DNA of 11,346 nucleotides, taken from positions 1 to 11,346 of the forward strand of contig JAJYFW010000017.1 in assembly GCA_021785335.1 (NCBI GenBank), written 5' to 3'. Of this stretch, positions 1-6,679 are shown piece after piece. A model generated the notes under the pieces. It was not told where the DNA came from and did no database searches. It was given only the letters and a program-made list of their open reading frames with translations. The DNA comes from Pseudomonadota bacterium (GTDB lineage Bacteria > Pseudomonadota > Alphaproteobacteria > Acetobacterales > Acetobacteraceae). Position 1 is the stretch's first letter. Each line of letters starts with the position of its first letter. A program made the position numbers and the translations under genes.

Positions 1-492
1 ACCCTCGCGGATCGGCGTGCCTTCGCCGCCCGGCTCCTCAAGAAGCACCCAGACTGGTCTGACCGGGAGATCGGCCGCCGTGCGGGGCTGGTGCAGCCGA
101 CGGTCGCCAAGGTCCGCCAGGACCTGGAGCGGGATGCCGCGATCCCCCAGGCGGACACAAGGCGCGGGCGCGATGGGCGCGTGTACCCGGCTTCGCCAGC
201 ATCGCCCGGTCGCTCGCTCGCCGAGATCGCCAGGGACGTGATCGAGCGGATGACCACGCCAGCTGAGCGCATCCAGCAACGCGAGATCGTTCGCTATCTC
301 GAACGCCTCGCAGACCTGCTGGAGGCCCAGGACAACCTCGCAGGCTTCGATACGATCAAGGCCGGTGCCGATGCCTGCCAAGCTGTTCTCGGCGAGGCAA
401 AGGCGCGTGAACTGGCGGAGCGCCTGGGCTGGTCGAGCGGCAACATCGTCGCCGTCGCCGAGGCGCTTGGCTACGTGGCGGCGGATTCCTGA
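1..492 (+). CDS. ParB-like DNA-binding protein, C-terminal part (5' truncated by window edge)
   Basis: The frame is open from the first base and ends at TGA 490-492, giving the last 163 residues; the N terminus lies outside the window. Near the visible N terminus is a helix-turn-helix of the kind found downstream of the ParB N-terminal domain, with the core DWSDREIGRRAGLVQPTV at residues 18-35. It is followed by a GRDGRVYP motif (about residues 56-63) that recurs after this HTH in StrR/ParB-like regulators. The C-terminal 90 residues are helical and show no enzyme motif. An internal GTG at 91 is not the true start, because coding similarity continues upstream of it. The stop overlaps the start of the Mom-like gene by 1 nt (TGATG), so the two are probably translationally coupled. 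The role could be transcriptional control or partition of the element. The ParB nuclease/CTPase domain itself cannot be seen. Confidence 0.7.
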   Translation, partial: TLADRRAFAARLLKKHPDWSDREIGRRAGLVQPTVAKVRQDLERDAAIPQADTRRGRDGRVYPASPASPGRSLAEIARDVIERMTTPAERIQQREIVRYLERLADLLEAQDNLAGFDTIKAGADACQAVLGEAKARELAERLGWSSGNIVAVAEALGYVAADS

Positions 493-1196
493 TGTCTGCG
501 CGGGTCGTTCAAGAGCAGGATAGCGCGGCTTCCTCCGCGCAGATGGCGGTGCGAGTCCGACCCCCGCGCTCCCTCACCAAATCGCTCGTCGTGACGCCGG
601 CAGCACCTTCCGTGATCCGGCCTCTGATCATCGATCATCACTATCTGCACTCGATGCCGGCCGCGACGTGGCGCTGCTTCTGCGTCTTTGTCGGGGACGT
701 GCTGTCGGGCGCGGTGCTGTTCACGGCTGGCCCCCGGCACGGGCATCGGTTGCTCGTCGGCGCACGCCCGCAACAGGTCGCCGTCCTCGCTCGCCTGTGG
801 CTGCACGATGACCTGCCGAAGAACGCCGAAAGCCGGGTCATCGGCATCCTGATGCGCCAGGTGCGCCGCGAGCAGGCGTGGAAGCTCGTGTTGTCCTATG
901 CCGACCCGGCCGCGGGCCACACCGGCACCATCTACCGGGCCTCGGGGTGGCTCTACCTGGGCCAGGGTCTGCCGGGTACATACATCGATCTCGGGGACGG
1001 CATCGCCCGCCATCCCCGCACCGTCTACGGCACGCACGGCGCCAACGGCATCGGGCATCTACGACGCACGGGGGTGCCCGCGCAGCGTCGTGTCGTCGGC
1101 GGCAAGCACCGCTACGCCTACCTGCTTGACCCGACTTGGCGGTGGCGGCTGCGCGTTCCGCCCGTGGCCTTCCCGAAGGTGGAGGCCGCGCCATGA
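492..1196 (+). CDS. Mom-like GNAT DNA-modification protein (adenine methylcarbamoylation family)
   Basis: This 234-residue protein has the motif order I recognise from the Mom family: HHYLHSMP (residues 49-56), a GARP...LARLWL..DLP stretch with ESRVIG (90-118), SYADPAAGHTGTIYRASGW (135-153), and KHRYAYLLDP with WRWRLRVP near the C terminus (205-223). Phage Mu Mom is a GNAT-fold enzyme that converts adenine in DNA to an N6-carbamoylmethyl form and shields DNA from restriction. The role of this homologue is inferred from family membership. The first 35 residues or so are not conserved in character, so a later start is possible, but the ATG at 492 overlaps the upstream stop and fits operon architecture. 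The end overlaps the next ATG by 4 nt. No Com-like zinc-finger activator, which controls mom in Mu, is encoded next to it. Confidence 0.85.
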   Translation: MSARVVQEQDSAASSAQMAVRVRPPRSLTKSLVVTPAAPSVIRPLIIDHHYLHSMPAATWRCFCVFVGDVLSGAVLFTAGPRHGHRLLVGARPQQVAVLARLWLHDDLPKNAESRVIGILMRQVRREQAWKLVLSYADPAAGHTGTIYRASGWLYLGQGLPGTYIDLGDGIARHPRTVYGTHGANGIGHLRRTGVPAQRRVVGGKHRYAYLLDPTWRWRLRVPPVAFPKVEAAP

Positions 1197-1777
1197 GCAG
1201 CAAGCCTCGCGACTACCGGGCCGAGTATGCGCGGCGGATCGCGCGGGGCCTTGGCCGGGGCCTGTCGCGCTCGCAGGCGCGGGGCCATCCCCGGTCGAAG
1301 GAGAAGCTGGTCCGCAAGGTCGGGAAGGCCAAACTGCCGAAGGTGGACCGGCGGCTGGAGGATGCCGTCGCCTCCCTGCGGAAGGGGCGCTCCCTCACGG
1401 CGAGCGCGAAGCACGCGCACGTCTCGCCCGAGCGCCTTCGCCGTCACCTCTCATCGCTGCGCTTCGTGTCGCAGAAGCGCGGTCGGTGGGTTGTCGGTGC
1501 CGACACGCGCCGCCGGCGGATACTGCTCTACAGCCGCGGGCGCGATGTCGAGGTCACGGTCCGTGAAGCCGAAGCGGCGAAGATCGGGCGCTTCATGGGG
1601 GCGGTCAGCCGGTTCCTCGAAACCAACGACGCGAGCCTGCTGGCGCCCTTCGTCGGGCAATCGGTCACCGACACCAAGGGCAAGCGCCACCCCTTCGAGA
1701 CCGACCCCAACAGCCTCTACCGGATCGCCGAGACCGGCGGGAGCACCTTCGAGGATGTCTATCGGATCGTTGCGTAG
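1193..1777 (+). CDS. Basic helix-turn-helix protein of unknown function
   Basis: This 194-residue protein starts at the ATG that overlaps the Mom-like stop (ATGA); an in-frame start 57 nt upstream would run into the previous gene and is less likely. The N terminus is very basic, with the pattern DYRAEYARRIARGL (7-20) then GLSRSQARGHPR (23-34), a signature I have seen in uncharacterised mobile-element and phage-neighbourhood proteins. Residues 65-92 look like a helix-turn-helix (SLTASAKHAHVSPERLRRHL). The C-terminal half (100-194) is a separate domain with RRRRILLYSRGRDVEVTV and a late FETDPNSLYRIAET motif, and I recognise no enzyme motif there. It is probably a DNA-binding accessory factor of the cassette. 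No function can be assigned, and transposase-like catalytic residues are not evident. Confidence 0.75.
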   Translation: MSSKPRDYRAEYARRIARGLGRGLSRSQARGHPRSKEKLVRKVGKAKLPKVDRRLEDAVASLRKGRSLTASAKHAHVSPERLRRHLSSLRFVSQKRGRWVVGADTRRRRILLYSRGRDVEVTVREAEAAKIGRFMGAVSRFLETNDASLLAPFVGQSVTDTKGKRHPFETDPNSLYRIAETGGSTFEDVYRIVA

Positions 1778-1780
1778 GAG
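1776..1780 (+). promoter_or_regulatory. Shine-Dalgarno site for the GTG-started HNH-like gene
   Basis: AGGAG lies 7 nt before the GTG at 1788 and overlaps the TAG stop of the preceding gene. It is the best ribosome-binding site in the cassette, and it decides the GTG start over the ATG at 1825, which lies in a different frame, and over upstream extension. Confidence 0.7.
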
Positions 1781-1787
1781 ATACGTC

Positions 1788-2153
1788 GTGAGCACCATAT
1801 CGGACGCCGAGAAGCGCCGGCTTCATGCATTGGAGCGGCTTGGCACGAACCATCCGGTTTGTGTCGTGTGCGGCGAGAACAACCCGCTGTGTCTCGAAGC
1901 CCATCACGTTGCAGGGCGGGCCTTCGACGACCAGACGGCGCTGGTTTGCCGCAACTGCCATCGCAAGCTGTCGGACGAACAGAAGGACCATCCCCCGAAG
2001 ATCGAATCCCCACCAAGCCCCCTTGAAGCGCTGGCCCATTACCTGCTCGGGTTTGGCGACCTTCTTCACCTCATCGCGGACCGCCTGAAGCAGTTTGCCC
2101 GCGAGCTGCTTGCGATGATCACTGCCGAACAGGGAAAGGGTGTCGGGCCATGA
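1788..2153 (+). CDS. Small HNH/zinc-ribbon-like protein
   Basis: This 121-residue protein uses a GTG start placed 7 nt after AGGAG. It carries a zinc-ribbon HNH-like core: CVVC (25-28), LEAHHVAGR (36-44) and CRNCHRKLSD (54-63), which is the CxxC...HH...CxxCH arrangement of phage and restriction-associated HNH nucleases. The Asn usually found just before the second Cys pair in active HNH enzymes is not obvious here (the residues are TALVC), so catalysis is uncertain and a purely zinc-binding, DNA-contacting role is possible. After a Pro-rich linker (69-79) there is a long amphipathic or weakly hydrophobic helix (80-112) that could mediate oligomerisation or membrane contact. The stop overlaps the polymerase start by 4 nt (ATGA), implying co-expression with the polymerase. 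The HNH assignment comes from the motif pattern only. Confidence 0.75.
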   Translation: MSTISDAEKRRLHALERLGTNHPVCVVCGENNPLCLEAHHVAGRAFDDQTALVCRNCHRKLSDEQKDHPPKIESPPSPLEALAHYLLGFGDLLHLIADRLKQFARELLAMITAEQGKGVGP

Positions 2154-5100
2154 CACCCGAGGAACTGCCCATCGCGGTGCGTGCTTTTGTCGATGCACCG
2201 AGTGCACCAGCGCCACGCCAGGGGCACCATACGATGCGGCCCATCGGCCCCTCTGATCGGGTGCTGGTCATCGACACCGAGACGACAACCGATGCGAGCC
2301 AGCAGCTTCGCTTCGGCGTTTATCAAATGCGCATCGGCGAAGAGCTTGCTGAGGCTGGTTTCTTTTACGATCGCGACAGCCTAACGAGCGACGAACTGTC
2401 GATATTGCGGACGGAGGCTGAGCGCCTGGGCATGAAACTCATGCCTGTGGCCGCGTTCATCGAGGAGGTGTTCTTCGAGGCAGCCTATGAGGGCCTTGGA
2501 ACCCTCGTCGGGTTCAATCTGCCCTTTGATATCTCACGCCTCGCCATCGCCCATGCGCCTGCGCGGGGCAAGGCAATGCGCGGAGGCTTCACCTTCAAGC
2601 TCAGTGCCGATCGCCGCTGGCCACGCATCCAGATCAAGCACCTCTCGCAGCGGGCCGCGCTGATACGCTTTGCCATGGTCCAGGGCGCACGTGCGGGTCG
2701 CGGCATGCGACGGCGTAACCAGAAACGGGCGCCAAGGCGTGGCTACTTCGTCGACGTGAAGACGATCGCCGCCGCTCTAACCGCTCGCTCCTTCACCCTC
2801 GCCACCCTCGCGGACCATCTCGCCGTGCCCAGCCGCAAACTCGACACCAACGAGCACGGCGGGCCGCTGACACCGGATTACGTGGCGTACGCCGCACGCG
2901 ACGTGCAAACCACCTGGGAATGCTATGCCGCCCTGCGTGACCGCTTCGACGAGTTCGGCCTGAAGCAGACACCGCTGCCGCGCATCTACAGCGAGGCGTC
3001 GCTTGGCAAGGCTCACCTGCGGGAGATGAACGTCGCGCCGTGGCGCAGCGTGCAGCCGGACTTCGATCCCAAGATGACCGGGACCATCCTCAGCACCTAT
3101 TATGGTGGCCGCACCGAGGTCCGCATCCGCCGCCAGGTGCGCCAGGTCGCGTACTGCGACTTCCTCTCCATGTATCCCACGGTCTGTGTCCTGATGGACC
3201 TTTGGCGGTTCGTCACGGCCAACGGCATCCGCCAAAGCGACGCTACCAAGGAAACCCGCGAGTTCCTGCACAGCGTGACCGTCGAGACCATGCAGCAGCC
3301 GGACGTGTGGAAGCGACTGCCCGTCCTGGTGCAGGTTGCCCCGGACGGGGACCTCTTCCCCGTGCGTGCCAAGTATGGCGGCGAGACGCACTACACCATC
3401 GGCCTCAGCCATCTCGCTGCAACAACGCCGATGTGGTTCACGCTCGCCGACTGCATCACCGCGACGCTGCTCGGTGGAAAGCCACCGAAGGTTCTCCAGG
3501 CAATCCGCTTCGAGCCCATGGACCGGCAAGCCTCATTGCTCCCGGTCTCGATCCTCGGCGATGACCGCTACCGCATCGACCCGGTGGAGGACGACTTCAT
3601 CCGGCGGCTCATCGAGCTGCGCAGCGACATCCGGGGGCAAGAGGTCGCGCCCAACAGCGACGACGAGGCCCGCCGCGACATGGCCCAGCAGGCCGTGAAG
3701 ATACTCGCCAACGCCACCAGCTACGGCATCTTCATCGAGTTGAACCCGAACGAGCTGCCCGAGCCCGTCCACGCCCAGGGATACGCCAACGGGGACGCGT
3801 TCGATTGCACCCTCGCGCAGATCGAGGAAGCCGGCCGCTACTTCCATCCGTTGCTCGGCACCCTGATCACGGGCGCTGCTCGCCTGATGCTGGCGCTGAC
3901 CGAGCGCAGGATCCGAGACAGCGGCCTGGAATGGGTGTTCTGCGACACGGACAGCATGGCCATTGCTCGGCCAGCCGACATGGGGGAGGTCACCTTCCAC
4001 GCGAAGGTGGAGGCGATCCGCAACTGGTTCGCGCCGCTCAACCCGTATCGTGGGCGGGCTGGCAGGGCGTCCGTGCTGAAGCTCGAAGACACCAACTTCG
4101 CCGTCGGTGCCGAGGGTTCACCATCTCGGGAGTTGGCGCCGCTTTACTGCTTCGCCGTGTCGCCGAAGCGCTACGCCATGTTCAATGTCGGGGAGGATGG
4201 TCGGCCGATCCTTCGGAAGGCATCAGCGCACGGGCTTGGGCACATGCGTGATCCTTACGGCGATGCTGCACGGCCCGCCTCGATCCCGCCCCCGCTCGCC
4301 GGTCGCGCCAACCCTGATGTCTCGCGGTGGCAGCATGACGTGTGGGTACGCATTATCCAGGCGGTGCTGGAGGGCCACCCTGAGCAGGTACGACTGCATG
4401 ACCTGCCCAACTTCGACCAGCCCGCTGTGAGCCGCTACGCGGCAACGACGCCGCAGCTGCTCGGCTGGTTCAAGCGATACAACGCGGGCAAGCCCTACCG
4501 GCAGCAGGTACGGCCCTTCAACTTCCTGCTGGCCTTCCAGGCCAAGCGACTTGAACGAGACGCGGAGCTTGAGGCCGAACCCGGCAAAGCAAGGAAGCAT
4601 AGCCGCTCCAGGGCCTCGAAGAACCTGCCCCGCGCCGTTGCGCCATATGATCGCGATCCAGTCCGCGCCGCCGCCCACTGCTTCGATAGGGAGACCGGCG
4701 AGCCAGTGTCCAGGCGCCAGCTCAAGACCGTCAACCAGGCTCTCGTCCGCTATCACCTACACCCTGACCGCAAGGCGCTTGGCGGCGAGTACCGGGACGC
4801 TGGGACCACCCACCCACTGCACGTCCGCGTCATAGCGATCCACTTCATCGGCAAGGAGGCTCACCGCTGGGAGGAGCAGTTCCACCTCGGCGAAGCACCC
4901 GATGCGCAAACCGAATACGGGACCATGCCCAGCGATCACCAGCAGATGCTCGCCATGGTTCGCGAAGGTATCCGTCGGCATGGTGCCCGGGCCGTCGCGG
5001 AACGCGCACGCGTCTCGCGGCAGCATGTTTCTTCAGTCGTGAGCGGGGTGAGCACGCCATCGGCGGGCGCGCTGGGAGCGCTGGCGAGGGCCGTGGCCGG

Positions 5101-5305
5101 GCTGAACGCGAAGCGGGATCGGGAGGCCAGCATCGTCGCTGACAGCCTCCAAGCCATACGCCAAGCCTGCAAGCGCCACGGCATCCGGCAAATAGCCCGC
5201 ACCGCTGGGGTCGACGACGGCAACCTCGCGAGGATCGTCGCCGGGAAGCGGAAGGCTTCCCAACCATTGATCCAGTCGCTGCTGGCGGTGATCGACCATA
5301 CCTAA
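2150..5305 (+). CDS. Family B DNA polymerase with 3'-5' exonuclease and C-terminal tandem HTH
   Basis: This 1051-residue protein has all core family B motifs. The DEDDy-type proofreading exonuclease shows Exo I VIDTET (D42, E44), Exo II GFNLPFD (N123, D127) and Exo III YAARD (Y247, D251). The polymerase shows motif A YCDFLSMYP (D337), motif B KILANATSYG (K517...YG 525-526, one residue longer between Asn and Tyr than the usual NSxYG), motif C FCDTDS (D599, D601) and a KxY-type SPKRY (673-675). All catalytic acids are present, so both activities should be intact. Residues about 930-985 and 995-1048 form two similar helix-turn-helix units (ARAVAERARVSRQHVSSVV and IRQIARTAGVDDGNLARIV), which is not usual for family B polymerases. 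A basic linker lies at 812-825. The ATG overlaps the HNH-like stop. It could replicate an episomal element or act in defence or repair. The KTRG motif I associate with primer-independent pipolin polymerases is not seen. Confidence 0.9.
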   Translation: MTPEELPIAVRAFVDAPSAPAPRQGHHTMRPIGPSDRVLVIDTETTTDASQQLRFGVYQMRIGEELAEAGFFYDRDSLTSDELSILRTEAERLGMKLMPVAAFIEEVFFEAAYEGLGTLVGFNLPFDISRLAIAHAPARGKAMRGGFTFKLSADRRWPRIQIKHLSQRAALIRFAMVQGARAGRGMRRRNQKRAPRRGYFVDVKTIAAALTARSFTLATLADHLAVPSRKLDTNEHGGPLTPDYVAYAARDVQTTWECYAALRDRFDEFGLKQTPLPRIYSEASLGKAHLREMNVAPWRSVQPDFDPKMTGTILSTYYGGRTEVRIRRQVRQVAYCDFLSMYPTVCVLMDLWRFVTANGIRQSDATKETREFLHSVTVETMQQPDVWKRLPVLVQVAPDGDLFPVRAKYGGETHYTIGLSHLAATTPMWFTLADCITATLLGGKPPKVLQAIRFEPMDRQASLLPVSILGDDRYRIDPVEDDFIRRLIELRSDIRGQEVAPNSDDEARRDMAQQAVKILANATSYGIFIELNPNELPEPVHAQGYANGDAFDCTLAQIEEAGRYFHPLLGTLITGAARLMLALTERRIRDSGLEWVFCDTDSMAIARPADMGEVTFHAKVEAIRNWFAPLNPYRGRAGRASVLKLEDTNFAVGAEGSPSRELAPLYCFAVSPKRYAMFNVGEDGRPILRKASAHGLGHMRDPYGDAARPASIPPPLAGRANPDVSRWQHDVWVRIIQAVLEGHPEQVRLHDLPNFDQPAVSRYAATTPQLLGWFKRYNAGKPYRQQVRPFNFLLAFQAKRLERDAELEAEPGKARKHSRSRASKNLPRAVAPYDRDPVRAAAHCFDRETGEPVSRRQLKTVNQALVRYHLHPDRKALGGEYRDAGTTHPLHVRVIAIHFIGKEAHRWEEQFHLGEAPDAQTEYGTMPSDHQQMLAMVREGIRRHGARAVAERARVSRQHVSSVVSGVSTPSAGALGALARAVAGLNAKRDREASIVADSLQAIRQACKRHGIRQIARTAGVDDGNLARIVAGKRKASQPLIQSLLAVIDHT

Positions 5306-5358
5306 CGGTGGGTCAGAGGCTAGTCGCACTTGAGGGATCCAAGCAGAAGCCACCACCG

Positions 5359-5376
5359 GGTCTCATCTAAGAGACC
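5359..5376. repeat. Short perfect hairpin GGTCTC-6 nt-GAGACC after the polymerase gene
   Basis: GGTCTC at 5359-5364 and GAGACC at 5371-5376 form a 6-bp stem around ATCTAA. The right arm is the left tip of the MITE-like element, so the left arm resembles an extra inverted copy of the element's tip. Only GTTTG follows, so this is at best a poor intrinsic terminator for the polymerase operon. Confidence 0.4.
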
Positions 5377-5533
5377 GTTTGAGAATGCGTTCCGGTGAGT
5401 CAGGGGCTCGCGCGAGCGAGCCGCCCGGCGGTGGTTTGCGAGCACCGGAGCGGAGCGATCTGGAGATCGTGAGCACCGGAGCACAGCAAACCACTGTCGA
5501 ATAACCGCCGGAGTAGCATTGTCAAACGGTCTC
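5371..5533. mobile_element. MITE-like 163-bp element with IS-type inverted ends and TAA target duplication
   Basis: The element begins with GAGACCGTTTGAGAATGC and ends with the inverse complement GAGACCGTTTGACAATGC (17 of 18 identical), with similarity continuing into a shared TCCGG. TAA lies directly on both sides (5368-5370 and 5534-5536), a 3-bp TNA target duplication typical of some IS5-family groups such as IS1031. No transposase fits in 163 bp, so it would have to be mobilised in trans by a related IS elsewhere. Inside are a 12-bp palindrome GCTCGCGCGAGC (5406-5417), inverted GTGGTTTGC arms near 5431 and 5485-5493, two direct copies of GAGCACCGGAGC (5440-5451, 5471-5482) and a central CGATCT/AGATCG hairpin. 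It should fold strongly as RNA or single-stranded DNA. The IS5-family assignment is an inference from the duplication and ends. Confidence 0.75.
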
Positions 5534-5707
5534 TAAAGCCGCCCCCTGAAGTGCCGGTGTTGCAACAGAAAATGAGTGTTGGGTTGCCTCCAAACCTATA
5601 CATAAAGGGCGTCCAGTCATGCCACTTCCATCGGATCATGATGGAGATGCTTGCCAAGATGAAATCATTCCGCGCAATATGTGGCTAACCAAAGAGCGAG
5701 GTCGACA

Positions 5708-6433
5708 ATGGCCATAAAATACGGTCCGATCACCATTCAGGACCCCATCCCCGACTCCGTTACACAGGAAGTTGCGGACAAGGAGACGGTTGAAAGAATC
5801 GACGCTCTCCGTACGTACGATTTCAATTTTCTCACCAATAACTTTGTTGTCTCTAAAATACGACGGTTTTCACCGGAACAATTATTCCCTCTGGTGCCAT
5901 ATTTTCGCCGGTTTAAACTTACTGTGGATGAGGATGTCTCGGTGCGCTTAGGAGTAGAATTCAAGAGATTTGTGACTGTTGCTCTTATTTACCCAAGCAG
6001 ACGAAATGCCCCATCCGGCCCCGTAGACATGTTTTGGCACTTTTTTATATTACATACTCCAGAATATGTACGGTTTTGTACGGAAATATTTGGGGCGTAC
6101 GGTCCGCAACCTCGGATCGGCAAGCATTATTTTACCGATTGGACTGATAAGCGGGCGGAACAAAATGCCATAAACAATGTGAACGATAAAAATGGTGATA
6201 GGCCGAATGTTGATCGGGACGCGATGGTAGATCACATTCCGGCGACAGACGAAACTCGCCCCGCGATGTATAAATCATATCAAGAAACAAGAAAACTTTA
6301 TACGAAACTTTTTGGAAAACCCGATAATAGGTTCTGGCCTCTTGGTGGAGGGGGTACGACTTGCGGCGATTCCTATTCTGGTTTTGTGAACCCTAAGTAT
6401 AAACGCACACCCATCTTAGAGTTATCCATATAA
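5708..6433 (+). CDS. AT-rich gene, GRDP-like (glycine-rich domain protein-like) hypothetical protein
   Basis: This 241-residue protein starts at ATG 5708, preceded by a weak AGCGAGG; an in-frame GTG at 5681 would add 9 residues but has no ribosome-binding site. The sequence resembles bacterial members of the GRDP-like family: PVDMFWHFFILHTPEYVRFC (105-124) with the invariant-looking WH, then a short HIP (176-178) and ETRKLYTKLFG (193-203), ending in WPLGGGGTTCG (210-220). An approximately 40-residue insertion (about 133-174) separates the FG and HIP parts, which are close together in the short family members I know. No signal peptide or membrane segment is evident. The biochemical role of the family is not established. 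Its AT-rich codon use differs sharply from every neighbour, pointing to recent transfer. It stands alone, with no partner in the same composition. The family link rests on motif recall and is moderately sure. Confidence 0.7.
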   Translation: MAIKYGPITIQDPIPDSVTQEVADKETVERIDALRTYDFNFLTNNFVVSKIRRFSPEQLFPLVPYFRRFKLTVDEDVSVRLGVEFKRFVTVALIYPSRRNAPSGPVDMFWHFFILHTPEYVRFCTEIFGAYGPQPRIGKHYFTDWTDKRAEQNAINNVNDKNGDRPNVDRDAMVDHIPATDETRPAMYKSYQETRKLYTKLFGKPDNRFWPLGGGGTTCGDSYSGFVNPKYKRTPILELSI

Positions 6434-6436
6434 TTT

Positions 6437-6467
6437 CCAATAGGTAAGCAGATATTGGTCGGTTTTT
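6437..6467 (+). terminator. Possible rho-independent terminator after the AT-rich gene
   Basis: CCAATA (6437-6442) and TATTGG (6453-6458) form a perfect 6-bp stem with a 10-nt loop, 3 nt after the stop codon. TCGG and a run of five T (6463-6467) follow. The stem is AT-rich and weak and the T-run is offset by 4 nt, so efficiency is uncertain. Confidence 0.4.
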
Positions 6468-6640
6468 ATCCGTCTGTGCGCGGCTGGGATTTCGCTTATC
6501 CATGTGGAGTGCTATAAATAGTAGAGACAATATTGGCTTGGTTTTGCACGTGCGATGGCGTTCATCCACGCTATACCTAACCGCGGGCGGTGCTGCCAGA
6601 AGTGTAAAGTCAGCGGGATATCGCTATACCCCCTCTTCCC

Positions 6641-6679
6641 CCCTGGCCTTCCCCGCTGGGCATCCGCCCCTGGCCTTCC
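6641..6679. repeat. 12-bp direct repeat upstream of the YcgN-type gene
   Basis: CCCTGGCCTTCC occurs at 6641-6652 and again at 6668-6679, a spacing of 27 bp, in a C-rich pyrimidine tract just before the next gene. It lies at the junction where base composition changes from AT-rich to GC-rich. It may be a regulatory repeat or simple sequence drift. Apart from this and the terminator, I see no gene or site in 6434-6706. Confidence 0.4.

What the first reader, a model, noticed from the sequence alone, without database searches (positions are those of the whole stretch)
1..5305. Five-gene cassette: ParB-like, Mom-like modification enzyme, HTH protein, HNH-like protein, family B DNA polymerase
The genes overlap by 1-4 nt or are 10 nt apart, so they are co-expressed, yet the combination matches no system I can name. 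A DNA polymerase with proofreading, an adenine-hypermodifying enzyme, a nuclease-like protein and two DNA-binding proteins could form a self-replicating element with protected DNA. Alternatively they could be a defence module that marks self DNA and resynthesises or degrades unmarked DNA. No capsid, terminase, integrase or relaxase is visible, so it is not a plain prophage in this window. Seen: gene order, overlaps, motifs. Inferred: joint function.
Basis: partly seen in the sequence, partly recalled or inferred. Interest (0 to 1): 0.8.

Follow-up and report, generated by a model that had tools for sequence, protein, structure and literature searches.

The report
Casposon carrying a DNA-disguising Mom gene
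The five genes are one end of a jumping DNA element (a casposon, which copies itself with its own DNA polymerase and inserts with a relative of the CRISPR protein Cas1), here also carrying a phage-type enzyme thought to disguise DNA from restriction enzymes.

Summary
The cassette is real, and it is the right-hand part of an integrated bacterial casposon. The order ParB-Mom-HTH-HNH-PolB recurs in other genomes. In all 13 PolB loci whose contig reaches far enough, a divergently transcribed Cas1 gene lies beyond; the window stops inside ParB, before that point. The element does not end at 5305: a terminal inverted repeat, 5'-GGGGTATAGCGATATCC, ends it at 6632, so a 250-aa AT-rich gene (5681-6433) is cargo. 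Ten related elements have both ends with 13-15-bp target duplications (15 bp in eight); one insertion has an empty site in a congener. The repeat begins almost like that of the active Methanosarcina mazei casposon (GGGATATAG). PolB had no relative in the phage, plasmid or viral-contig collections searched. Two features I did not find in print: a Mom (adenine-modification) gene coupled to ParB, in at least three elements beside restriction genes; and insertion into hairpin loops (terminators, REP-like palindromes) at 7 of 10 sites. Palindromic 15-bp duplications made by a Cas1 relative resemble CRISPR repeats and make one idea about repeat origin testable. The casposon identification is very likely; Mom's protective role is inferred.

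The parts
1..492 (+). ParB-like protein, C-terminal 163 aa (5' end cut by the window): HTH region
   Evidence: 68% identical over 165 columns to the 292-aa protein of L001
492..1196 (+). Mom family DNA-modification protein, 234 aa
   Evidence: Pfam PF25680 E=1.7e-42; PHROG 1384; PDB 8bv8 Mom E=2.7e-13
1193..1777 (+). Small basic core protein, probable HTH, 194 aa; found in 17 of 17 loci compared, with or without Mom
   Evidence: model m55895797cd79
1788..2153 (+). HNH-type nuclease-like protein (GTG start); found in 17 of 17 loci compared
   Evidence: CxxC...HH...CxNCH pattern, alignment A4 of 8; PHROG HNH families E=5e-4
2150..5305 (+). Family B DNA polymerase, 1051 aa, proofreading exonuclease and polymerase motifs, motif C CDTDS
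   Evidence: invariant D42/E44, D127, Y247/D251, D337-Y342, K517-G526, D599-S602 in 25 sequences
4922..5290 (+). Two C-terminal XRE-like HTH domains of the polymerase (about residues 925-983 and 997-1047)
   Evidence: Pfam HTH_3 E=3.6e-8; PHROGs 2119, 3642
5681..6433 (+). AT-rich (45% G+C) 250-aa gene of unknown function, cargo inside the element
   Evidence: lies between PolB and the terminal repeat; no significant Pfam, PHROG or PADLOC family; G+C
6588..6632 (-). Right terminal inverted repeat; first 17 nt (6632 down to 6616) GGGGTATAGCGATATCC identical to G001, 45 of 60 positions identical over 6573-6632
6633..6647 (.). Presumed 15-bp target-site duplication, only one copy visible
   Evidence: position inferred from relatives

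Best explanation
Window 1-6632 is the right-hand part of a casposon inserted in a bacterial chromosome (probably alphaproteobacterial, judged from its relatives and recalled flanking genes). Predicted cycle: Cas1 (casposase, left of the window) binds the terminal repeats, excises or captures the element and inserts it with a staggered cut that duplicates about 15 bp; the element's own PolB copies it; HNH, the HTH protein and the HTH tails of PolB assist end recognition, targeting or regulation. Mom, translated with ParB, is predicted to modify adenines (methylcarbamoylation, as named for its solved relative) so that the DNA survives restriction on entry into a new cell. Shown by sequence: gene set and order, terminal repeats, target duplications in relatives, one empty site, linked Cas1 in relatives. 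Inferred: Cas1 for this very copy, activity of every protein, role of Mom.
For: Cas1 (PF01867 E=4.2e-46 in L001; best PDB match 6opm, which I recall as the M. mazei casposase) is present in 13 of 13 PolB loci whose contig extends past that point. HTH and HNH genes in 17 of 17 loci. Paired TIRs: exactly two copies of the TIR pattern in each of G001, G602 and G682; 5 of 8 genomes had a hit; reversed-pattern control zero in all 8. Target duplications: 15 bp in 8 of 10 two-ended elements, 14 and 13 bp in the others. Empty site in G896 for the G849 insertion. Window TIR 45 of 60 identical to G001. Two facing TIRs 15 bp apart in G975. M. mazei MetMaz-C1 TIR starts GGGATATAG and its duplication is 14 bp (PMC10359463, passage); A. 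boonei 14-15 bp (PMC6614799, passage).
Against: Cas1 and the left terminal repeat of this copy lie outside the window and could not be fetched, so the element might be truncated. Mom activity and benefit are untested; 7 of 17 loci show no Mom, so it is not essential. PolB similarity to solved polymerases is weak (E=0.0021). No tree places this Cas1 among published casposon families or against CRISPR Cas1; the second PDB match (4n06, 9.7e-19), which the call names only as Cas1, is not far behind 6opm (6.1e-22). The TIRs of G358 and G581 are only 19 and 16 of 25 identical.
Confidence: 0.92

Rival explanations
1. Early region of a phage or prophage, or part of a plasmid, that happens to carry PolB and Mom.
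For: Mom is known from phage Mu and matches a PHROG family; PolB hits phage polymerase profiles weakly.
Against: No PolB match in 50,697 phage or 72,556 plasmid records (a second PolB, from G602, against plasmids); two pattern-based scans of viral contigs confirmed no relative; the end at 6632 is a casposon-type repeat; Cas1 is linked in relatives.
Confidence: 0.03
2. Defence or self-marking module (Mom marks self DNA, HNH and PolB act on unmarked DNA).
For: Type I, type III and type IIG restriction-modification genes lie in related elements.
Against: No Mom in 7 of 17 loci while HTH-HNH-PolB and Cas1 stay; restriction genes differ between elements and sit as cargo.
Confidence: 0.03
3. Immobilised or decaying casposon remnant retained for Mom or for a host function.
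For: One relative (G975b) has Asn where the aligned Cas1 proteins have a conserved active-site His; the left part of this copy is unseen.
Against: All window genes are open with close spacing and the right repeat is intact; two PolB-bearing elements in each of G002 and G975 suggest mobility.
Confidence: 0.1
4. Pipolin or another PolB-carrying integrative element using a tyrosine or serine recombinase.
For: Self-encoded PolB; G602 carries a serine recombinase inside its element.
Against: A recombinase was seen in one element only among the cargo proteins scanned; Cas1 is in 13 of 13 loci.
Confidence: 0.02

Closest known systems
Family 3 (bacterial) casposons, e.g. HenMar-C1 and NitAL212-C1 (PMC4046053: Results parts 1 and 2 of 3 read, plus passages)
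   Same: Bacterial hosts, Cas1 + PolB + HNH + HTH protein, TIRs and target duplications, DNA-modification genes among cargo (HenMar-C1: C5 methyltransferase)
   Different: Mom, ParB, a shared GGGGTATAG terminus and hairpin targets are not mentioned in the text parts seen; Cas1 clade not tested here
Family 2 casposons (archaeal)
   Same: Core of Cas1, PolB, HNH and two HTH proteins; HTH at the C terminus of PolB
   Different: No HTH found fused to Cas1 in the one Cas1 scanned with Pfam (L001); some other Cas1 here have a C-terminal extension not examined; bacterial hosts
MetMaz-C1, casposon of Methanosarcina mazei shown to move (PMC10359463, passages and abstract listing)
   Same: TIR begins GGGATATAG (identical for these 9 nt in G759; the window has GGGGTATAG), target duplication 14 bp
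   Different: Archaeal host, 8 genes, other target site; Mom not mentioned in the passages seen
Phage Mu Mom (PDB 8bv8)
   Same: Homologous over residues 41-222
   Different: Here in a transposon and next to ParB; no search for a Com-like regulator was made

Membership tests
Casposon | Cas1 linked to the polymerase | tested here: met
   Met in 13 of 13 relatives with enough contig; for this copy it lies outside the window and is not seen
Casposon | Family B DNA polymerase | tested here: met
Casposon | Terminal inverted repeats | tested here: met
   Right TIR in window at 6632; both ends in 10 relatives; left one of this copy unseen
Casposon | Target-site duplication of about 14-15 bp | tested here: met
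   In relatives: 15 bp in 8 of 10, 14 and 13 bp in two; only one side visible in the window
Casposon | No conventional transposase or recombinase shared by the elements | tested here: inconclusive
   Only selected cargo proteins were scanned; one serine recombinase, in G602
Casposon family 3 | Cas1 in the family 3 clade | not tested
   Published casposase sequences were not fetched; no tree built
Casposon family 2 | HTH domain fused to the C terminus of Cas1 | tested here: not met
   Pfam scan of the L001 Cas1 finds the Cas1 domain only; one protein scanned
Mom (Mu) family | Mom-domain homology | tested here: met
   Pfam PF25680 over cut-off; 8bv8
Mom (Mu) family | Methylcarbamoylation of adenine | not testable with these tools
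   needs nucleoside mass spectrometry

The most novel reading that the evidence does not exclude
A widespread bacterial casposon lineage uses Cas1 to insert into the loops of hairpin-forming palindromes (terminators and REP-like repeats), creating palindromic 15-bp duplications like small CRISPR repeats, and in one branch protects its DNA with Mom. Palindrome recognition by Cas1 would then predate CRISPR, and dispersed palindromes would be a ready source of the first repeats.
Probability: 0.5. Interest if true: 0.8.

Novelty: new variant of a known kind. Interest (0 to 1): 0.64.

Why it matters
Casposons are held to be the source of the CRISPR adaptation module, yet the founding paper listed 19 islands, mostly archaeal (PMC4046053). 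Here the PolB family has at least 2270 relatives at E<=1e-3 in a protein database (not all need be casposons), and nine bacterial genomes showed an element with both ends. One lies in a 3.9-Mb contig whose length ties it to the named species Acidibrevibacterium fodinaquatile. A Mom gene in a transposon suggests anti-restriction DNA modification outside phages. Hairpin-loop targeting would link Cas1 insertion to palindromes, so that one idea of where CRISPR repeats came from can be tested in vitro.

Tried and rejected
Phage, plasmid and viral-contig searches with PolB gave nothing; the viral scans rest on short peptide patterns. tRNA genes as insertion targets: none in the 20 loci scanned; G759, G849, G975 were not scanned. 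The inverted-repeat search (six elements) found the ends of four and missed G358 and G581; the pattern scan missed G759; a search for direct repeats found the ends of all three. That search's own control on G001 and G602 used a wrong boundary and did not return their known ends as the top hit. The structure of the Cas1-neighbour protein (A2) was poor (pLDDT 50): only its N-terminal third is confident, and MerR-type Foldseek matches are not significant. The HTH-protein model gave no significant fold match. No Cas1 tree was built for lack of published casposase sequences. Hairpin targeting is weak or absent at 3 of 10 sites (G358 none; G581 and G759 weak), and in the stem-centre test G602 is only at P=0.064.

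Contig-length co-occurrence: 23 of 70 PolB contigs of 10 kb or more have a length that is also in the Cas1 or Mom list; shifted controls 0-2 per shift. The lists hold only the best 120 each.

Full report
What is there. Mom is secure: Pfam PF25680 E=1.7e-42, PDB 8bv8 E=2.7e-13. In PolB the exonuclease and polymerase motif residues are invariant across 25 aligned sequences, the window's and 24 chosen from the 120 listed; HTHs sit at its C terminus. Motif names are recalled.

Who else has it. A database search gave 2270 relatives of PolB at E<=1e-3 among 7997 scored candidates; the candidate list was cut, so this is a lower bound, and not all need be casposons. There was no match in 50,697 phage or 72,556 plasmid records. 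Two pattern-based scans of viral contigs confirmed no relative (1 and 4 stretches matched). Whole genomes with a match: 3 of 385 in the class of G002, G002 included; 6 of 398 in the phylum of G125, G125 and G358 being already in the first set; 6 of 299 in the order of G002, G002 included. So the family is rare per genome but broad. Genomes of this tool are unnamed; contig lengths tie G759 to Acidibrevibacterium fodinaquatile (P0209, 3,907,406 bases), G849 to Acidocella sp. (P0018, 114,888 bases) and G979 to a Rhodospirillales MAG (P0196, 41,500 bases). L001 and L002 are named MAGs.

The missing integrase. In L001 (G001) the same five genes are followed, divergently, by a 320-aa protein and a 372-aa Cas1 (PF01867 E=4.2e-46). 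Its best solved relative is 6opm (E=6.1e-22), which I recall as the M. mazei casposase; the call names it only as Cas1, and another Cas1, 4n06, follows at 9.7e-19. Counting 17 PolB loci (window, G001, G002a, G002b, G125, G358, G481, G581, G602, G682, G759, G805a, G849, G975a, G975b, G979a, G979b), 13 have contig past that point and all 13 have Cas1, in G481 as a partial gene at the contig end. The other four (window, G002a, G002b, G979a) are cut first. Left out of the count: pieces that match only the C-terminal part of PolB (G805b; and in G001, G002 contig C35 and G979b near the other element end). The HTH and HNH genes are in 17 of 17. Mom is in 10 of the 17 (partial at the contig end in G002a and G002b); none was found in G125, G358, G481, G581, G602, G682 and G805a. 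ParB is seen with Mom wherever the contig allows, and in G805a without Mom. In G002 the contig with ParB and Cas1 (C16) overlaps both ends of the PolB contig (C18) by the same 96 bp, so two elements share that stretch in the assembly. Searching 8 genomes for the Cas1 family: G602's two hits are one gene in two pieces, G002 has a second Cas1 elsewhere, the other six show one hit each. By eye, through the 6opm alignment, the active-site Glu, His and Asp are conserved in the Cas1 alignment except His-to-Asn in G975b; the fourth published position was not mapped. PolB and Cas1 distances correlate over 11 loci (Mantel r=0.75, P=0.0005); over only 6 loci Mom correlates with Cas1 (P=0.024) and ParB (P=0.016), and not clearly with PolB (r=0.56, P=0.087).

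The ends. A search for inverted repeats flanking six cores found GGGG...TATA-type repeats in four: G001 (54 bp perfect), G125, G602 and G682. The pattern GGGGTATARYGATA occurs exactly twice in each of the genomes G001, G602 and G682, at the element ends; G002 has three, G481 two, and G125, G358 and G581 none (their ends differ); the reversed pattern has no hit in any of the 8. In the window the repeat lies on the - strand from 6632 and matches G001 at 45 of 60 positions. Thus the element ends at 6632, and the 45% G+C gene 5681-6433 is inside, while DNA beyond is 73% G+C and holds CxxCxxCC, DHDPS, response-regulator and flagellar/T3SS-type ATPase genes (a LysE-like gene and the name CtrA are recalled). 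Ten relatives have both ends: target duplications are 15 bp in G001, G125, G602, G849, G481, G002, G358 and G581 (in G581 the direct repeat runs on into the TIR), 14 bp in G759 and 13 bp in G682. G481 and G002 ends lie on different contigs and were paired by their identical 15 bp. The TIRs of G358 and G581 are less alike (19 and 16 of 25 identical), that of G759 is 25 of 25. In G975 two facing TIRs are 15 bp apart, as for tandem elements; no core gene was found in the 5.6 kb of the neighbour that is held. An empty site for the G849 insertion exists in congener G896: 216 of 239 identical, continuous across the junction. In print, M. mazei MetMaz-C1 has TIR GGGATATAGG... and a 14-bp duplication (PMC10359463, passage), and A. 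boonei Cas1 makes 14-15 bp (PMC6614799, passage).

The target. Rebuilt empty sites are hairpins in 7 of 10 cases (G001, G125, G602, G682, G849, G481, G002), with folding energy of -10.5 kcal/mol or lower in a 41-nt window; G581 and G759 fold weakly, G358 not at all. Of 4573 intergenic windows from nine of the contig pieces 5.1% are as stable; binomial P for 7 of 10 is 1e-7. A stem-centre test on the seven gives per-site P of 0.0015 to 0.064, G602 being the weakest. Caveats: the threshold was set after seeing the sites, gene calls were crude, the three other sites were not in the stem-centre test, and the control pieces exclude G849, G481 and G759. By eye, the G849 and G682 sites are rho-independent terminators; part of the G602 site recurs many times in congeners, as REP-like palindromes do (44 of 61 genomes have some match to the 360-nt query). 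The 15 bp beside the window's end show no evident palindrome by eye, and the other half is unseen.

Cargo. Related elements carry a type I restriction system (G001: hsdR, hsdS, hsdM), hsdS and hsdR (G759, by similarity to G001), a type III system (G849), a type IIG enzyme (G682), an N6/N4 methylase (G975a), an AAA-DUF4143 protein matching a PADLOC candidate (G125), and two radical-SAM proteins and a DUF4062 protein (G358). G602 instead has a serine recombinase, two RepB/ParB proteins and an antiporter. G581 gave an ABC-type ATPase and a pentapeptide protein. Only selected proteins were scanned: 22 distinct ones, one of them the window's; several had no family.

How it probably works. Cas1 inserts the element by joining GGGGTATAG ends to a target with a 15-bp stagger; PolB copies it. 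This follows the published casposon model (PMC4046053: outline, Results parts 1 and 2 of 3, passages). Mom probably shields the element from restriction at entry, as Mom does for phage Mu DNA (PMC6483171, abstract in a search listing). That is inference.

Literature. 'casposon' + 'Mom' gave one paper, whose casposon passages concern profile HMMs. 'casposon' + 'terminator' + 'hairpin' gave none; 'casposon' + 'palindrom' + 'target site' gave 32, 12 listed, and in the three I looked into the palindrome passages concern CRISPR repeats or palindromes inside TIRs. Papers since 2023 with casposon terms: 22, none titled as a bacterial survey. The library holds only open-licence papers, so absence is not proof. 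Casposons with DNA methyltransferases are known (HenMar-C1, AciBoo-C1; PMC4046053); Mom would extend that theme.

Verdict. New variant of a known kind: a casposon, identified with high confidence, whose Mom-ParB module and hairpin targeting I did not find in print.

Noticed in passing
window 5681-6433: AT-rich 250-aa gene with no family match, inside the element
   Followed up: partly
G001:C30:17617-17973, G002:C35:4295-4618, G979:C21 12301-12687: Stretches resembling the C-terminal HTH part of PolB lie near the Cas1-side end of some elements, as if the polymerase tail and the repeat had been copied to the other end
   Followed up: no
G975:C25 (L076) Cas1: Asn in place of a conserved Cas1 active-site His, while a second element in the same genome keeps His
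   Followed up: no
L071 8560-8575: One IMG/VR contig holds the terminal-repeat pattern GGGGTATAGYGATATC once; possible chance or a short derivative
   Followed up: no
G002 contigs C16, C18, C35 (L014-L016, L019): Two elements with different PolB genes share an assembled segment at ParB/Mom; recombination or recent copying
   Followed up: partly
L030 9033-12387 (G602): Serine recombinase plus two RepB/ParB genes inside a casposon, perhaps a nested element
   Followed up: no
P0334, P0344: Close Mom relatives named from Chloroflexota and Armatimonadota MAGs, suggesting transfer between phyla or misbinning
   Followed up: no
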